From Streptomyces sp. NRRL WC-3549 (GTDB taxonomy: Bacteria; Actinomycetota; Actinomycetes; Streptomycetales; Streptomycetaceae), in assembly GCF_000721935.1 (NCBI RefSeq), contig NZ_KL585415.1, forward strand, positions 21,365 through 35,842: a stretch of 14,478 nucleotides of DNA, in the 5' to 3' direction. A program made the translations under genes and the position numbers. The notes below the pieces were generated by a model that had not been told where the DNA came from, did no database searches, and was given only the letters and a program-made list of their open reading frames with translations. Below, in pieces: positions 3,762 to 10,539 of this stretch (position 1 is its first letter; each line of letters starts with the position of its first letter).

Positions 3762-4283
3762 ATGAGTCTTCTGCGTATCGTCGGCCGCCCGCTCCTCGCC
3801 TCGATGTTCATCGCCGGCGGCGTGAACTCCGTGCGCCGGCCCCAGGACGTGGCCGAACTGTCCGAACCCGTCGTCCGGCCGGTGGCCGACCGGGTCGCCG
3901 TGCTCCCGGACCGCACCGAGCAGCTCGTACGGCTCAACGGCGCCGTGCAGGTGGTGAGCGGCGTCCTGCTCGGACTGGGACGGTGCCCGCGGCTGTCCGC
4001 GCTGGCCCTCGCGGCGACCGTGGTCCCCACGACGCTGGCGGCCCACCGGTTCTGGGAGGTGGAGGACGCCTCCGACCGGGCACAGCAGAGCATCCACTTC
4101 CTCAAGAACCTGTCCATGCTGGGCGGCCTGCTGATCGCCGCCGACGACACCGGCAGCGCCCCCTCGCTGCTGTGGCGCGGCCGTCACGCCGCCCACGGTG
4201 TGCGCCACGACGCCCATGTGGCGCGCCGCTCGGCCCGTGCCGCGGCGATGTCCGGCGGCGTACGGGCCAAGCTGGGCGTCTGA
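3762..4283 (+). CDS. DoxX-like membrane protein
   Basis: Protein of 173 residues resembling the DoxX family of small four-helix membrane proteins, some linked to redox or sulfur stress. Start ATG 3762 is preceded by GGAGG at 3750-3754 with a 7-nt spacer; the longer open frame upstream overlaps the AraC-type gene and is not coding. The N-terminus has the family signature RPLLASMFIAGGVNSVRRP (residues 9-27). Further helices are at about 58-73 (NGAVQVVSGVLLGLGR), 78-96 (ending TTLAAHRFWE) and 111-127 (IHFLKNLSMLGGLLIAA). The C-terminal ~45 residues are hydrophilic, His- and Arg-rich, and likely cytoplasmic. It seems to stand alone as a single-gene transcript. The family is fairly clear; the substrate or partner is not. 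Confidence 0.88.
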   Translation: MSLLRIVGRPLLASMFIAGGVNSVRRPQDVAELSEPVVRPVADRVAVLPDRTEQLVRLNGAVQVVSGVLLGLGRCPRLSALALAATVVPTTLAAHRFWEVEDASDRAQQSIHFLKNLSMLGGLLIAADDTGSAPSLLWRGRHAAHGVRHDAHVARRSARAAAMSGGVRAKLGV

Positions 4284-4596
4284 AGCGGTACGAGGGCCGG
4301 CCGCACGGACAGCGAGGCCGGATCGCGCTCCACACGGCTTCCTGCCCGGCCGCCGAGCCCCGGTCACGTCGGCTTCCGCCACCCACCCGTCGGTACCACT
4401 GCCCGGCGGACCACCGCACGGGCGGCGGCTGGAGACGGGGTATGGGAGCCTGAAAGGGGCCGGACGGGTGAGCCCGCGAGGCCAGGGGCCCCGGCCGGAC
4501 AGCCGCCGGGAGCCAGGGCAGGGTGCGGCGCCCGGCCGCTGGAACAGCCCTCACCGCCGCACCCGTGGGCCCCCGGGTTTCCGTCATGGAGGACTG
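4284..4596. other. Intergenic stretch without recognisable gene
   Basis: About 310 bases after the DoxX-like gene. Open frames run through it on both strands, but they are GC-driven, overlap each other, and have Arg/Pro/Gly-rich translations with no recognisable domain. I see no strong terminator stem, promoter or RNA gene. Confidence 0.5.
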
Positions 4597-4773
4597 ATGA
4601 GCAGAGCGGCAGAGGCTGCCAGGGCCGGAATCCGGCAGCTCGCCGGGACGAAGAAGTAGGCCGACGGGATCGCTCCGGACGATGCCCGGGCGAGGGACGA
4701 GGGCGAGCAGCAGCAGAGGGAGGCGCGGACACGGGCATCACACGCCCGCCGACGGCACCGCCCCCGGCCCTGA
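4597..4773 (+). pseudogene. Possible CsbD-like short gene with in-frame TAG
   Basis: A GGAGGA ribosome site (4588-4593) precedes ATG 4597. The frame reads MSRAAEAARAGIRQLAGTKK, meets TAG at 4657-4659, then continues in the same frame as ADGIAPDDARARDEGEQQQR and a basic tail to TGA 4771-4773. Read through, it is about 58 residues, the usual size of actinomycete CsbD-like stress proteins. It has a similar plan: a helical Ala/Arg/Lys N-terminus, a short turn with acidic residues (APDDARARDEGE), then a second Glu/Gln-rich helix. The family match is by pattern from memory and is weak. It may be a CsbD-like pseudogene, a genuine 20-residue peptide gene, or chance. Confidence 0.35.
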
Positions 4774-4920
4774 CCTTCTCCGGCCGACCGCTCCTGCTCG
4801 CCCCGGCCGGAATCACCACTGCGAAACCACCCGACCGACGCGAAAGGGTCGATAGCTCCGCGGAATGCGGGCATGCGCGTGCGGACAGGGACCGGAGAAG
4901 AGAGCGAGGAGTGGAGACAC

Positions 4921-5898
4921 ATGCAGATCGGATACAAGCTGGCCGCCGAGGCGTTCGGCCCGGGCGAGCTGGTGCGCCAGGCGGTACTCGCCGAGCGCGC
5001 CGGGTTCGACTTCGTGGAGATCAGCGACCACTACCATCCGTGGCTCGACAACCAGGGTCACTCCCCCTTCGCATGGACCGTGCTGGGAACCATCGCGGCG
5101 CGCACCGAGCGGATCGGGCTGGCCACCGGTGTGACGTGTCCGACGGTGCGCTACCACCCCGCGATCATCGCCCAGGCGGCCGCCACCCTCGCCCTCCTGT
5201 CGGACGGACGGTTCACCCTCGGGCTGGGGTCCGGCGAGCGGCTCAACGAGCACGTCGTCGGCCGCGGCTTCCCGGACGCGGTCAGCACCCGGCAGGACAT
5301 GCTGCGGGAGGCCCTGGAGATCATCAGGCTTCTGTGGAGCGGCGGCTACCGGTCCTACGAGGGCAAGCACCTTCAGCTCTCGGACGCCCGTGTCTTCGAT
5401 CTGCCCGACTCCCTTCCCCTCCTCGTCGTGGCCGCCGGGGGCCGTGACGCGGCGACGCTCGCCGCCGAGCTCGGGGACGGGCTGTTCGCCACCGAGGACA
5501 GGGACGAACTGGTCCGGCACTACCGCGAAGCCGGTGGCACCGGTCCCCGCTACGCCGAGGTCCCCGTCGCCTGGGCGCCCGACGAGAAGAGCGCCGCGCA
5601 GGCCGTCCTCGACACCTCCAGGTGGGCGCTCACCGGGTGGAAGGTGATGAGCGAGCTGCCCAATCCGGTGAACTTCGACGCGGCCACCACCACGGTCCGG
5701 CTGGAGGACGTCCAGGAGAAGTTCGCGTGCGGACCGGACCCCGCCCTGTACGTGGACGCGGTGCAGAGCTACGTCGACGCCGGATTCGACCGGCTCGTCA
5801 TGCAGAACGCGGGCCCCGACCCCGACGGGTTCATCGACTTCTACACCCGTGAGCTCGATGCGCCGCTGCGCAGGCTCACGCCGGGGAAGGCCGGGTGA
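4921..5898 (+). CDS. F420-dependent LLM-class oxidoreductase, FGD-like
   Basis: Flavin-like F420 enzyme of the luciferase-like monooxygenase fold, close to F420-dependent glucose-6-phosphate dehydrogenase (FGD). I chose ATG 4921 (325 residues) because the protein then begins MQIGYKLAAEAFGPGELV like FGD, with GGAG sites 4-9 bases upstream; an in-frame ATG at 4873 would add 16 unlike residues. Visible motifs are SDHYHPW (His37, Trp41, matching the FGD catalytic His and Trp), GVTCPTVRYHPAIIAQAAAT (70-89), and GLGSGERLNE (Glu106, matching the catalytic Glu). By alignment from memory, the FGD phosphate-binding Lys198 falls in EDRDE here and Arg283 appears as Lys, so glucose 6-phosphate is doubtful as the substrate. 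It is cytosolic and apparently monocistronic, convergent with the DeoR-type gene. Confidence 0.92.
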   Translation: MQIGYKLAAEAFGPGELVRQAVLAERAGFDFVEISDHYHPWLDNQGHSPFAWTVLGTIAARTERIGLATGVTCPTVRYHPAIIAQAAATLALLSDGRFTLGLGSGERLNEHVVGRGFPDAVSTRQDMLREALEIIRLLWSGGYRSYEGKHLQLSDARVFDLPDSLPLLVVAAGGRDAATLAAELGDGLFATEDRDELVRHYREAGGTGPRYAEVPVAWAPDEKSAAQAVLDTSRWALTGWKVMSELPNPVNFDAATTTVRLEDVQEKFACGPDPALYVDAVQSYVDAGFDRLVMQNAGPDPDGFIDFYTRELDAPLRRLTPGKAG

Positions 5899-5938
5899 CG
5901 ACGCCGCGGCGCGGCACACCATGACGCGCGGCGAACCC

Positions 5939-5972
5939 GCCGAGGCCCCGGCCCACGGCGCCGGGCTCCGGC
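5939..5972. terminator. Imperfect stem-loop between convergent genes
   Basis: GCCGAGGCCCC (5939-5949) can pair with GGGCTCCGGC (5963-5972) with one mismatch and one wobble, in the 80-base gap between the LLM oxidoreductase and the DeoR-type gene. Plausible two-way terminator, not strong. Confidence 0.3.
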
Positions 5973-5978
5973 GGACCG

Positions 5979-6711
5979 TCAGACCGTGACCACCTTGACG
6001 CCGATGTCGGCGAGACGGGCGCTCATGTCGGCCGGCAGAGCCGAGTCCGTGACGAGGACGTCGACGTCCTCGAGCCCGCAGATTCGGGCGAAGGCCCGCT
6101 TGCCGATCTTCGACGAGTCGGTGACCAGGACGACGCGCTGAGCGCGCTCCGCGAACAGCCTGCTGATACTCGCCTCGTCCTCCTGGTGGGCCATCACGCC
6201 GAGCTCGGGATCGAGTCCGTCGATCCCGAGGACGGCCACGTCGAGCACGACCTCCTTCAGTACGCCGGCGGTCAGCGGACCCACCAGCTCGTACGTCTGA
6301 GGCCGGGCCACGCCGCCGGTGACGACGATCTTGATCTGGGGCCGTACGGCGAGTTCGCCCGCGATGTTCAGCGCGTTGGTGACGACCGTGAGGGCGGGTG
6401 CCGCGGCGGCCTCCACCGCGCCGTGCCGTCCTCCGCCCGCCCGCAACGCCAGCGCGCGGGCCACCTCGGTGGTGGTCGTACCTCCGTTGAGCCCCACGAC
6501 GTTTCCGTCGCCGACGCAGTTCGTAGGCGACGCCGTGGGAGATGGCTCCGCCGCGCGTCCGGATGAGCATCTTCTGCTCGGCGAGTTCGTCGAAGTCCCG
6601 CCGAACCGTCGCGGGGGAGACCCCCAGGGACGCTGCGGTCTCCTCGACGTCCAGCCTGCCCTCGGCCGCCAGCAGCTCCAGCAGCGCGTTCCACCGCTCG
6701 TGTTTGGCCAT
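5979..6711 (-). pseudogene. DeoR/GlpR-family regulator, internal deletion and frameshift
   Basis: Sugar-responsive repressor of the DeoR/GlpR family, broken near its middle. From ATG 6711 (AAGGAG 10 bases upstream) the first frame encodes the winged-helix domain: MAKHERWNALLELLAAEGRL, then LGVSPATVRRDFDELAEQKM and RTRGGAISHGVAYELR. The second frame encodes the sensor domain: VVGLNGGTTTTEVARALALR (phosphate-binding GGTTT), ALTVVTNALNIAGELA, VVTGGVARPQTYELVGPL, VLVTDSSKIGKRAFARI, ending at TGA 5979-5981. The frames meet near 6512-6517. Intact relatives have about 25-30 residues between YEL and VVGLNGGTTT, including a KxRIAxxAA helix, which are missing here, so this is a deletion with frame change, not a single-base slip. 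The N-terminal domain alone could still be made. Targets are unknown; no sugar operon is adjacent in the window. Confidence 0.85.
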
Positions 6712-6828: not shown

Positions 6829-6847
6829 GGATGTGTATAAGAGACAG
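6829..6847. other. Tn5/Nextera mosaic-end sequence (likely adapter artefact)
   Basis: GATGTGTATAAGAGACAG at 6830-6847 equals 18 of the 19 bases of the synthetic Tn5 mosaic end used in Nextera libraries; only the first base differs (G for A). A run of seven G precedes it (6824-6830). Translations across it give the peptides MYKRQ, CLLYTS and SLIHI, which are typical of this contamination in databases. The natural Tn5 outside and inside ends differ from this mosaic, and no transposase is nearby. The sequence on the two sides may therefore not be adjacent in the genome. Confidence 0.9.
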
Positions 6848-7605: not shown

Positions 7606-7627
7606 GCAAGGAGACATCTCTCCTTGC
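7606..7627. promoter_or_regulatory. Perfect 9-bp inverted repeat upstream of RAE
   Basis: GCAAGGAGA (7606-7614) and TCTCCTTGC (7619-7627) form a perfect inverted repeat with a 4-nt centre (CATC). Its outer GCAAG and CTTGC words are the same five bases that form the arms of the RAE core 29 bases further on. It could be a second operator or a stem-loop in a leader or terminator. A TATAGC hexamer at 7639-7644, between this repeat and the RAE, could be a -10 box. Confidence 0.45.
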
Positions 7628-7651: not shown

Positions 7652-7670
7652 GGGGCTTGCGGCAAGACCC
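7652..7670. promoter_or_regulatory. Rifamycin-associated element (RAE)
   Basis: GGGGCTTGCGGCAAGACCC is a 19-bp imperfect palindrome (CTTGC-G-GCAAG core with GGG/CCC flanks). As I recall it, this is the published RAE consensus with one base changed near the right end. RAEs lie upstream of rifamycin-inactivating genes in actinomycetes (rph, rgt, rox, arr, helR) and are associated with rifamycin-inducible expression. Here it is 60 bases before a glycosyltransferase remnant and 269 bases before the rifampin phosphotransferase start. A TATAGC hexamer lies just upstream at 7639-7644. Confidence 0.85.
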
Positions 7671-7729
7671 GGGGCGCGGCGCAGAATCGTCGGTCGAGAC
7701 CACAACCTGCGGAAACGGGGGATCACGAC

Positions 7730-7942
7730 GTGCGTGTGCTGACATCGACGTACGGGAGACGCTGTGGCGTCGCACCGGTGGTGGCGCCGGAGGTGCGGCT
7801 GCGGGCGCCCGGTGCGGCGGAGGGAGGGCGACCGGAGACGAGGACATGCCCGGCGAGGGGTAGGACGGAGTCGGGCGCGCCGGTGACGGGATCGGTCATC
7901 GCGGCGCAACGGAGTACGGCTGTCCCGGAGGTGTCGCCATGA
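7730..7942 (+). pseudogene. Remnant of macrolide-type (rifampin?) glycosyltransferase
   Basis: A 70-codon frame from GTG 7730, preceded by GGGGGA (7717-7722). Its start, VRVLTSTYGRRCGVAPVVAP then EVRLRAPGAA, resembles the N-terminus of MGT-type glycosyltransferases (MRVLxSTYGSRGDVEPVVAL, VRLRALGAEVRV). Later residues VTGSVIAAQRSTAV recall a following segment of those enzymes, but most of the ~400-residue protein is absent, including the UDP-sugar-binding domain. The key GSRGDVEP loop is damaged (GRRCGVAP). The frame ends in TGA 7940-7942, overlapping the rph start as ATGA. Rifampin glycosyltransferases (Rgt) are of this family and carry RAEs, so an rgt remnant is the best reading; this is inference from pattern and position. 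The short frame may still be translated and couple to rph. Confidence 0.6.
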
Positions 7943-10539
7943 CCCGGCCGTATGTGCGGGCTCTCCAGGAGATCGACGAGCTGCAGGTCGCGGTCGCCGG
8001 AGGCAAGGGTGCGCACCTGGGCGGACTCTCGCGGATCGAAGGCATCCCTGTACCTGATGGCTTCTGCGTGACGACGGACGCCTTCCGGCGGATCATGGCC
8101 GAAGTGCCGTCGATCGATGATCGGCTCGATCAGTTGTCGCGTTCGGACCCGGATGACCGGGCGGCGATCAGTGCGCTCAGCGCGCAGATTCGCCGGGCCA
8201 TCGAGCAGGTCGTCATTCCGGGCGATCTCGCGGCGGAGATCACCGGCGCCCTGGCCCAGTTTGGCGAGCAGGCCGCCTATGCCGTCCGGTCCAGCGCGAC
8301 GGCGGAGGACCTGCCGACGGCCTCCTTCGCCGGACAGCAGGACACCTACCTGAACATCGTGGGGCCGACGGCGGTCCTCCGGCACGTCAGCCGCTGCTGG
8401 GCTTCGCTCTTCACCGAGCGGGCCGTGACCTACCGTCGGCGGAACGGCATCGACCACCGGACCGTCCACATGGCCGTGGTCGTGCAGCGCATGGTCTTCG
8501 CGCAGGCGGCCGGCATCCTGTTCACGGCCGACCCCGTCACGGGCAACCGGAACGTAGCCACCGTGGACGCGGGCTTCGGCCTCGGCGAGGCCCTGGTCTC
8601 CGGACTGGTGAACCCGGACGTGTTCAAGGTGCGGCGGGGCGAGATCGTGGAAAAGGCGATCGCCGCCAAACCGCGTGCCGTACACGCCCTGCCGGCCGGG
8701 GGTACGCGGGAAGTGGCGATCGACTCGCAACGGCAGCGGGTGCCGGCCCTGACCGATGCGCAGGCCGTGCGGCTCGTGGGGCTCGGGCGGCGGATCGAAG
8801 CGCACTTCGGCTGTCCGCAGGACATCGAATGGTGCCTGATCGATGACGGCTTCCAGATCGTTCAGAGTCGGCCGATCACGACGCTGTTCCCCGTGCCCGA
8901 GGCCGGCGACCGGGAGAACCACGTCTATGTCTCCGTCGGCCATCAGCAGATGATGACCGACGCCCTGAAGCCCCTGGGGCTGTCCATGTGGCGGCTGACG
9001 GCCATGGTGCCGATGAGCGAGGCCGGCGGGAGGCTGTTCGTGGACGTCACCCGGCGCCTGGCCTCACCGGCGAGTCGCACCGGCCTCCTGGACCTCATGG
9101 GAAGAGGGGATCCGCTGGTCAGGGACGCGTTGGAGACCGTTCTCGACCGCGATGACTTCGTTCCGTCGCTCCCGGACGCGGATTCCGGCGGGCCGCCCGC
9201 AGCACCCGCCTCTGCTCCGGTCGAGACCGATCCCACCCTCGTCACCGGCCTGGTCGAGCGCAGCCGGACGTCCGTCGCCGCCCTGGAGCGCGACATCCGG
9301 ACGAAGGCCGGACCGACGCTGTTCGACTTCCTGCTGGAAGCGTTCGAGGAACACAAGCGGATCCTCGGTGACCCTCTGAGCATGCGCGTGATCATGGCGG
9401 GCATGGAGGCCACCTGGTGGCTCAACGACAAGCTGGGGGAGTGGCTGGGGGAGAAGAACGCGGCCGACACCCTGACACTGTCCGCCCCCGGCAACGTCAC
9501 GTCGGAGATGGGGCTGGCCCTGCTCGACGTCGCGGACGTGATCCGCCCCCACCCGGAAGTGGTGGCGTTCCTGGAGGACGTCGAGGACGAGGACTTCCTG
9601 GACGATCTGGCGGAACTCGCCGGCGGAACCGAAGCCCGCGAGGCCGTCGAGGCCTACCTCGGCAGGTACGGCATGCGCTGCGTCGGCGAGATCGACATCA
9701 CCAGGCCGCGTTGGCGCGAGCGCCCCACCACGCTCGTTCCCGTGATCCTCGACCACGTCAGGAACTTCGAGCCGGGCGCCGCCGAGCGGCGGTTCGAACA
9801 AGGGCGGCACAGGGCGCGGGAGAAGGAACAGGACCTGCTGTCACGCTTGCGGGACCTGCCGGACGGGAACCGGAAAGCCGACGAGGCCAAACGCATGATC
9901 GACCGGGTCCGCACCTTCATCGGATACCGGGAGTACCCGAAGTACGACATCGTCAGCCGTTTCTTCGTCTACAAGCAGGCCTTGCTGAGGGAGGCCGGAC
10001 GTCTTGTGCGGAGCCATGTGCTCCGGGACAAGGAGGACGCCTTCTACCTCACCTTCCAGGAGTTCCACGACGTCTCCCGCTCCGGCCAGGTGGACGAGCG
10101 GCTCATTCAGCAGCGCAAGGACGCCTTCCGGTCGTACCACGACCTCACTCCGCCCCGGGTGCTCACATCGGACGGCGAGGCGGTCACGGGGGCCTACCGG
10201 CGCGACGACCTGCCGGCCGGCGCCCTGATCGGTCTCCCCGTCTCCACCGGGACCGTCGAGGGAAGGGCTCGCGTCGTCCTCGACATGACGGAGGCGGACC
10301 TGGAGACGGGCGACATCCTGGTCACCGCCCACACGGACCCCAGCTGGTCGCCCTTGTTCGTCGGAATCTCGGGCCTGGTGACGGAGGTCGGCGGTCTGAT
10401 GACCCATGGCGCCGTCATCGCCCGGGAGTACGGCTTGCCGGCCGTCGTGGGCGTCGAGCAGGCGACCCGGCTGATCCGGGACGGGCAGCGGATCCGCGTC
10501 CACGGGGCCGACGGGTACGTCGAGATCCTGTCTGCCTGA
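7939..10539 (+). CDS. rph: Rifampin phosphotransferase
   Basis: Inactivates rifamycins by moving the beta-phosphate of ATP to the C21 hydroxyl, releasing AMP and phosphate. At 866 residues it matches the family length. The three domains are in order: ATP-binding (about 1-315), rifampin-binding (about 325-750) and swivelling His domain (about 770-866). Visible residues are Lys23 (GGKGAHLGGL), Arg117 (YAVRSSATAEDLP), Glu297, Gln309 and Arg311 (DIEWCLIDDGFQIVQSRP), and the phospho-carrier His823 in GGLMTHGAVIAREYGLPAVV (codon 10405-10407). Spacing agrees with Listeria RPH (Arg117, Glu297, Gln309, Arg311, His825). The start at ATG 7939 has GGAGG (7927-7931), 7 bases upstream. It resembles PEP synthase, but the RAE upstream and the middle domain favour RPH. 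All catalytic residues are intact, so it should confer rifampin resistance and be rifamycin-inducible through the RAE. Confidence 0.96.
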   Translation: MTRPYVRALQEIDELQVAVAGGKGAHLGGLSRIEGIPVPDGFCVTTDAFRRIMAEVPSIDDRLDQLSRSDPDDRAAISALSAQIRRAIEQVVIPGDLAAEITGALAQFGEQAAYAVRSSATAEDLPTASFAGQQDTYLNIVGPTAVLRHVSRCWASLFTERAVTYRRRNGIDHRTVHMAVVVQRMVFAQAAGILFTADPVTGNRNVATVDAGFGLGEALVSGLVNPDVFKVRRGEIVEKAIAAKPRAVHALPAGGTREVAIDSQRQRVPALTDAQAVRLVGLGRRIEAHFGCPQDIEWCLIDDGFQIVQSRPITTLFPVPEAGDRENHVYVSVGHQQMMTDALKPLGLSMWRLTAMVPMSEAGGRLFVDVTRRLASPASRTGLLDLMGRGDPLVRDALETVLDRDDFVPSLPDADSGGPPAAPASAPVETDPTLVTGLVERSRTSVAALERDIRTKAGPTLFDFLLEAFEEHKRILGDPLSMRVIMAGMEATWWLNDKLGEWLGEKNAADTLTLSAPGNVTSEMGLALLDVADVIRPHPEVVAFLEDVEDEDFLDDLAELAGGTEAREAVEAYLGRYGMRCVGEIDITRPRWRERPTTLVPVILDHVRNFEPGAAERRFEQGRHRAREKEQDLLSRLRDLPDGNRKADEAKRMIDRVRTFIGYREYPKYDIVSRFFVYKQALLREAGRLVRSHVLRDKEDAFYLTFQEFHDVSRSGQVDERLIQQRKDAFRSYHDLTPPRVLTSDGEAVTGAYRRDDLPAGALIGLPVSTGTVEGRARVVLDMTEADLETGDILVTAHTDPSWSPLFVGISGLVTEVGGLMTHGAVIAREYGLPAVVGVEQATRLIRDGQRIRVHGADGYVEILSA

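What the first reader, a model, noticed from the sequence alone, without database searches (positions are those of the whole stretch)
7652..7942. RAE separated from rph by a glycosyltransferase remnant
The RAE (7652-7670) normally sits just before a rifamycin-inactivating gene. Here the first frame after it is the wreck of an MGT-type glycosyltransferase, the Rgt family, and the intact rph follows with an ATGA overlap. The simplest history is an ancestral RAE-rgt-rph operon in which rgt decayed while rph kept the RAE as its only inducible control. That would be direct evidence of replacement between two rifamycin-inactivation chemistries at one locus.
Basis: partly seen in the sequence, partly recalled or inferred. 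Interest (0 to 1): 0.75.

Follow-up and report, generated by a model that had tools for sequence, protein, structure and literature searches.

The report
Old gene stub reused as rph leader
Between the rifamycin switch and a rifamycin-resistance gene lies the start of a different rifamycin-resistance gene, fused there once long ago and still kept as a short reading frame that ends exactly where the resistance gene begins, probably because it leads ribosomes there.

Summary
The RAE (7652-7670), a GTG-started 70-codon frame (7730-7942) and intact rph (7939-10539) are as described, and the frame's TGA overlaps the rph ATG. The first ~90 nt of the frame are the 5' end of rgt (Rgt-family glycosyltransferase): E 4.6e-7 against a model of 45 intact RAE-linked rgt genes.

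This is no local wreck: RAE, UTR and up to ~47 rgt codons precede rph in Streptomyces and other families, and the 28 best copies form one clade (support 0.994). No hit in 110 rph leaders goes beyond rgt nt 167, and no RAE-rgt-rph order was seen. Intact RAE-rgt is instead followed by helR (20 of 28 loci with enough flank); two helR leaders hold 3' parts of a lost rgt.

The stub is not simply decaying. Its residues drift nearly freely (median dN/dS 0.77-0.96; same part of intact rgt 0.31), yet the frame is kept: 40 of 46 leaders in frame, 12 of 12 in a further set, 37 length changes against 6 frame changes on the rph tree. Best reading: an rgt 5' stub, probably captured, reused as a translated leader coupled to rph. 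Translation and coupling are inferred, not measured.

The parts
7606..7627 (.). inverted repeat GCAAGGAG-N6-CTCCTTGC, ending 24 bp before the RAE
   Evidence: a like repeat before 85 of 110 rph, 19 of 25 rox, 30 of 48 rgt and 17 of 38 helR RAEs (controls 19 of 155); role unknown
7652..7670 (.). RAE (rifamycin-associated element), 19-bp near palindrome
7671..7729 (+). RAE-to-start stretch, 59 bp, like that of intact RAE-rgt loci (56-62 bp in 47 of 48)
7682..7687 (+). CAGAAT, putative -10 of a promoter whose -35 would overlap the RAE
   Evidence: sequence; the same or a similar word recurs in rgt, rph, helR and rox loci; layout inferred from mycobacterial helD as described in PMC10719064 (passages)
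7730..7942 (+). leader ORF, 70 codons, GTG start, TGA overlapping the rph start
7731..7820 (+). remnant of the 5' end of rgt (rgt nt 2-91)
   Evidence: (E 4.6e-7)
7810..7937 (+). 3' part of the leader, shared with other rph leaders; source unknown
   Evidence: E 1.1e-19 to a model of 23 full-length rph leaders
7927..7932 (+). GGAGGT, Shine-Dalgarno-like sequence of rph inside the last codons of the leader
   Evidence: sequence
7939..10539 (+). rph, rifamycin phosphotransferase, intact

Best explanation
Long ago, in one event, rph came under the control of an rgt promoter. The piece that moved (or was left) holds the RAE, the 5' UTR and about the first 47 codons of rgt, joined to ~125 nt of other sequence before rph. 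The resulting frame of ~86 codons starts at the old rgt start codon and stops at a TGA overlapping the rph ATG or GTG. Since then its residues have drifted nearly neutrally and large parts were lost, but losses that break the frame were mostly removed. It therefore probably acts as a translated leader: the RAE-controlled mRNA is read by ribosomes from the rgt start, which terminate at ATGA and reinitiate on rph; translating the leader may also protect the mRNA from polarity. Shown: rgt descent of the 5' part, one clade, frame preservation, near-neutral residues. Inferred: capture, translation, coupling and benefit to rph expression.
For: rgt match and shared geometry; the NCBIfam Rgt model hits the full-length leader of L033 at residues 1-40, E 1.3e-10. 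One clade of 28 rph stubs, support 0.994. Frame: 40 of 46 leaders in frame, 35 of 46 end at +4, 27 of 33 distinct lengths in frame, p 1.4e-8 if independent. Tree of 44 of them: at least 37 length changes, 6 frame-class changes, P 3.6e-10. Further set: 12 of 12 in frame, 11 of 12 at +4. Of the 40 in-frame leaders 35 are free of stops, against 8 and 12 in the other forward frames and 12.4 +/- 2.7 (largest 20) in shuffles. Changes at codon positions 1-3 are 0.32/0.36/0.32 in 18 long leaders and 0.26/0.23/0.51 in the same part of intact rgt; median dN/dS 0.87 (whole leader), 0.96 (rgt part), 0.77 (3' part) against 0.31 for that part of rgt and 0.46 for whole rgt. The window's leader differs from that of L033 by one gap of exactly 17 codons.
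Against: No expression, ribosome or mutant data. rph has its own good Shine-Dalgarno, so coupling may be dispensable. Many rph genes have RAE gaps of 50-100 bp with little or no leader. Six of 46 leaders are out of the coupled frame, and five in-frame ones carry a stop in it. The 3' part (dN/dS 0.77) may be under some constraint, and its source is unknown, so the join is not reconstructed. Among greedy nearest pairs on the tree only 14 of 20 length differences are multiples of three. Reverse-strand frames of the in-frame leaders are also often open (39, 36 and 20 of 40). helR leaders do not show the +4 rule (2 of 12). The p-values assume independent events, and the further set comes from the same genus.
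Confidence: 0.7

Rival explanations
1. One reading: an ancestral RAE-rgt-rph operon lost rgt by deletion, leaving its 5' end before rph. (This concerns origin; it can hold together with a later leader function, so the odds overlap with the best explanation.)
For: The 5' stub is rgt. In-situ loss of rgt is seen for helR: RAE-rgt-helR is common and helR leaders L214 and L190 hold rgt 3' parts.
Against: No RAE-rgt-rph locus seen: 0 of 28 RAE-rgt loci with at least 800 bp held downstream, and no rgt match over 150 aa in the rph loci (upstream DNA held was about 1.5 kb for L002-L031 and up to 4 kb for L032-L111). No rgt hit beyond nt 167 in 110 rph leaders, even at E <= 10.
Confidence: 0.3
2. The leader peptide is a sequence-specific regulator (attenuator or arrest peptide) sensing rifamycin or stalled transcription.
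For: It is widespread, in frame, and lies between an inducible-type promoter and the gene.
Against: Residues evolve nearly neutrally, cancelling frame shifts replace long stretches (L003, L011), and the window RNA folds no better than shuffles (z 0.69; only the window was folded).
Confidence: 0.05
3. The frame is kept by shared ancestry and chance only; no selection acts on it.
For: Leaders are related, high-G+C DNA has few stops, and reverse frames are often open too.
Against: 37 length changes with only 6 frame changes on the rph tree; 12 of 12 in the further set; the other two forward frames far less open.
Confidence: 0.1

Closest known systems
RAE-linked rifamycin resistance genes (rgt, rph, rox, helR)
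   Same: RAE, surrounding promoter-like sequence and an intact rph
   Different: the leader carries the coding start of another member (rgt); no account of this was found in the open-access searches
Rgt, rifamycin-inactivating glycosyltransferase (NF000354)
   Same: about the first 30 codons here, about 47 in the best preserved rph leaders, and the RAE-to-start distance
   Different: lacks the rest of the protein, so it cannot be an enzyme
Translationally coupled leader cistrons with start-stop overlap (natural operons, recalled; engineered bicistronic designs, PMC10367133, seen only as a search listing with the start of its abstract)
   Same: short upstream frame ending on the start codon of the gene, Shine-Dalgarno-like sequence inside its last codons
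   Different: arose from another resistance gene's 5' end; coupling untested here

Membership tests
Rgt glycosyltransferase | N-terminal sequence homologous to Rgt | tested here: met
   E 4.6e-7 (DNA); the leader of L033 hits NF000354 at E 1.3e-10
Rgt glycosyltransferase | full-length protein with both glycosyltransferase halves | tested here: not met
   70 codons, no rgt hit beyond nt 91 in the window; no Rgt elsewhere in the own assembly, 85.5% complete, only partial 33-34% matches
RAE element | 19-bp palindrome upstream of a rifamycin-resistance gene | tested here: met
   102 of 110 rph loci (L002-L111) have one by my pattern
RAE element | rifampicin induction through it | not testable with these tools
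   no expression data
Rph rifamycin phosphotransferase | ATP-binding domain and mobile swivel domain in a protein of ~865 aa | tested here: met
   NF041857 1617 bits, cutoff 999; PF01326 and PF00391; matched along its length by solved chains 5hv1, 5fbs and 5hv2, deposited as phosphoenolpyruvate synthase
Translationally coupled leader ORF | frame kept and stop overlapping the next start | tested here: met
Translationally coupled leader ORF | downstream expression depends on leader translation | not testable with these tools
   needs reporters or ribosome profiling
Attenuator or arrest leader peptide | conserved residues or an RNA switch | tested here: not met
   median dN/dS 0.77-0.96; no unusual fold of the window leader

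The most novel reading that the evidence does not exclude
Much of the actinomycete RAE regulon was seeded from rgt: an RAE promoter with the rgt coding start was captured once by rph and also came to stand before rox, and was left behind by rgt loss before helR; before rph the stub became a coupling cistron selected for being translatable in one frame, not for its residues.
Probability: 0.5. Interest if true: 0.72.

Novelty: new variant of a known kind. Interest (0 to 1): 0.6.

Why it matters
It gives a sequence record of how one RAE promoter came to serve different rifamycin-resistance chemistries, and a clean natural case of a reading frame kept without its residues. It also suggests what small proteins named 'hypothetical' or 'vancomycin aglycone glucosyltransferase' of ~86 aa may be.

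Tried and rejected
Pfam and NCBIfam on the 70-aa frame: nothing at E <= 1, so a DNA model of rgt was built instead. A perfect-palindrome RAE pattern found nothing. RNA folding of the window leader: no signal. Source of the leader 3' part: a model of it hit only rph loci; outside loci that are rph with a leader, the one match was in L068 (RAE-rox-rph), E 0.16; the RAE-less rph loci L097, L100, L103, L105, L108 and L109 had no hit. Resident rgt in the own genome: only 33-34% partial matches; own relatives of Rox are 47% identical at best and the best-scoring HelR relative 38%, so no clear orthologue was seen in this 85.5% complete assembly. The 2012 Rgt and 2014 Rph papers are not held, so absence from print rests only. 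One search ended in a script error after its counts; the listing was redone. (ORF list of L129) was used only to fix coordinates.

Full report
What is in the window. The RAE GGGGCTTGCGGCAAGACCC lies at 7652-7670. Its core occurs once in the own assembly with up to one mismatch allowed. After 59 bp a GTG at 7730 opens a 70-codon frame that ends at TGA 7940-7942, overlapping the ATG (7939) of rph, an intact rifamycin phosphotransferase (NF041857, 1617 bits). GGAGGT at 7927-7932 looks like a good Shine-Dalgarno for rph. I take the genus as Streptomyces because locus L007 (genome G168, same genus as the window) and L036 (Streptomyces sp. ERV7) have the same contig coordinates once the flank is allowed for, and the same leader.

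Is the frame really glycosyltransferase? The 70-aa frame has no Pfam or NCBIfam match at E <= 1. Intact RAE-linked glycosyltransferases were found by scanning 392 genomes of the genus for the RAE (267 have it) and for the protein (145 of 392 at E <= 1e-110, which includes genes without RAE). The two tested match the Rgt model NF000354 at 522 and 511 bits (cutoff 800), far above any other model; they are Rgt-like by family, their activity is not tested. In 47 of 48 RAE-rgt loci the start lies 56-62 bp after the RAE, as in the window. A DNA model of 45 intact rgt coding sequences hits the window leader at rgt nt 2-91, E 4.6e-7 per Mb; 151 shuffled leaders gave no hit. Of 110 distinct rph leaders 36 hit at E < 0.01 and 28 at E < 1e-6; 48 hit at E <= 10, all on the plus strand and all ending by rgt nt 141 except L128 at nt 167. 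A well-preserved leader (L033, 87 aa) matches the Rgt model at residues 1-40, E 1.3e-10, and an intact Rgt at 29 of 38 residues. The window leader aligns to it at 41 of 86 positions with one 17-residue gap.

Not local, and one origin. Of 110 rph loci (L002-L111) 102 have an RAE upstream by my pattern; the eight without include L010, whose RAE has one change outside the core. RAE-to-rph gaps run from 49 to 353 bp in the 110 distinct leaders analysed; in L068 a rox gene lies between RAE and rph. The stub is detected in Streptomyces, Actinacidiphila (L033), Nonomuraea (L049), Acrocarpospora (L050) and Micromonospora (L056), among others. A protein search with the 87-aa leader found 615 relatives at E <= 0.001; 91 of the 120 listed cover at least 90% of it (my count of the listing). 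In a tree of the RAE-plus-stub DNA (47 rgt, 28 rph, 5 helR, 3 rox; for rph, helR and rox only leaders with E < 1e-6 that begin at the rgt start), the 28 rph form one clade, support 0.994, that includes the window; the three rox stand beside it with weak support (0.59). The gene label changes 5 times, against 30.6 on average (smallest 25) for shuffled labels. The tree is short and midpoint-rooted, so only the rph clade is firm.

Operon decay or capture? Of 28 RAE-rgt loci with at least 800 bp held downstream, 20 are followed by helR and none by rph; 22 of the 30 loci L142-L171 hold both rgt and helR. Leaders of helR include rgt 3' parts (L214 and L190) and, in six others, rgt 5' parts; L214 also shows the rgt start by the 8-codon template. 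So loss of rgt from RAE-rgt-helR operons is well supported. No rph leader has a rgt 3' part. The ~125 nt between stub and rph are shared by rph leaders (window 7810-7937, E 1.1e-19; 70 loci at E < 1e-3) and were not found in the rgt, helR or rox-only loci held; their source is unknown. So rph may have captured the rgt promoter with its coding start, or a deletion in a now unseen RAE-rgt-rph operon ran past the rgt stop. I favour capture, without proof.

Frame kept, residues nearly free. Leaders with a recognisable rgt start (template score >= 12, length >= 30; 46 of the 110) were read from that start. In 40 of 46 the distance to rph keeps the ATGA/GTGA stop frame; in 35 of 46 the frame runs open to the stop at +4; five in-frame ones stop earlier (L019, L020, L029, L055, L099). 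Of the six out of frame, three (L026, L032, L096) run in frame into rph, two of the same class (L006, L024) stop early, and L027 is in the third class; L006 and L027 have another frame that ends at +4. Distinct lengths: 27 of 33 in frame (p 1.4e-8 if independent). On an rph tree with 44 of these leaders, length changes at least 37 times and frame class 6 times (P 3.6e-10 for 6 or fewer at 2/3). Among greedy nearest pairs, 14 of 20 length differences are multiples of three, weaker but in the same direction. In the 40 in-frame leaders frame 0 is open in 35, frames 1 and 2 in 8 and 12, shuffles 12.4 +/- 2.7; reverse frames are open in 39, 36 and 20, so openness alone is weaker evidence than the length rule. 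As a further test 60 more rph upstream stretches were fetched: 6 had no RAE by the pattern, 5 repeated known leaders, 49 were new, 12 had the start, and all 12 were in frame, 11 ending at +4 and one (L299) at -5. They come from the same genus and some are close to each other (L286 and L296). By contrast, codon positions 1-3 take 0.32/0.36/0.32 of the changes in 18 long leaders and 0.26/0.23/0.51 in the first 47 codons of intact rgt; median dN/dS is 0.87 (whole leader), 0.96 (rgt part) and 0.77 (3' part), against 0.31 (first 47 codons of rgt) and 0.46 (whole rgt, 18 genes). In L003 and L011 frame shifts cancel. In helR leaders with the start, 2 of 12 end at +4 and 4 of 12 at -4; no single class dominates. 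Of 3 rox leaders none ends at +4.

Reading. The residues are close to free while the frame is not, and the stop sits on the start codon of rph: this is what a coupling cistron predicts. Sequence-sensing leader peptides are disfavoured by the near neutrality and by the plain RNA fold of the window leader. Translation and coupling are not shown.

Literature (passages only). RAE is described as a 19-bp palindrome upstream of rifamycin-resistance genes; in mycobacterial helD it overlaps the -35 of the downstream promoter, and its factor is unknown (PMC10719064; PMC12802891; also PMC8655204; PMC7283461; PMC10194278). Nothing on rgt remnants or rph leader frames appeared in the listings; the original Rgt and Rph papers are not held.

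Noticed in passing
window 6829-6847 (- strand): A Nextera transposon mosaic end (CTGTCTCTTATACACATCC, 1 mismatch; identity recalled; 0 in 200 shuffles) is embedded in the contig, so the join between the DeoR-family regulator side and the GNAT gene side may be an assembly artefact; the RAE-rph stretch lies wholly on one side.
   Followed up: partly
window 7606-7627, and 24 bp before the RAE in related loci: A second inverted repeat (GGCAAGGAG-N-CTCCTTGCC type) precedes the RAE in 85 of 110 rph, 19 of 25 rox, 30 of 48 rgt and 17 of 38 helR loci, against 19 of 155 control stretches; not mentioned in the passages read.
   Followed up: partly
L068, RAE near 2248, rph 4001-6583: One RAE is followed by a full rox and then rph in tandem; the stretch before rph weakly resembles the tail of rph leaders, E 0.16.
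   Followed up: no
L142-L171: rgt-helR is a common two-gene order in the genus: inactivating enzyme plus RNA polymerase rescue factor (22 of 30 loci; 20 of 28 RAE-rgt loci).
   Followed up: partly
L097, L100, L108 (Myxococcus, Corallococcus), L103, L105 (Dormibacterota), L109 (Solirubrobacteraceae): rph relatives at 74-76% identity from outside the usual actinomycete genera show no RAE by my pattern in the 2.5 kb upstream.
   Followed up: no
L045: RAE-rph (gap 90) on a 1.07-Mb plasmid of Streptomyces nigrescens.
   Followed up: no
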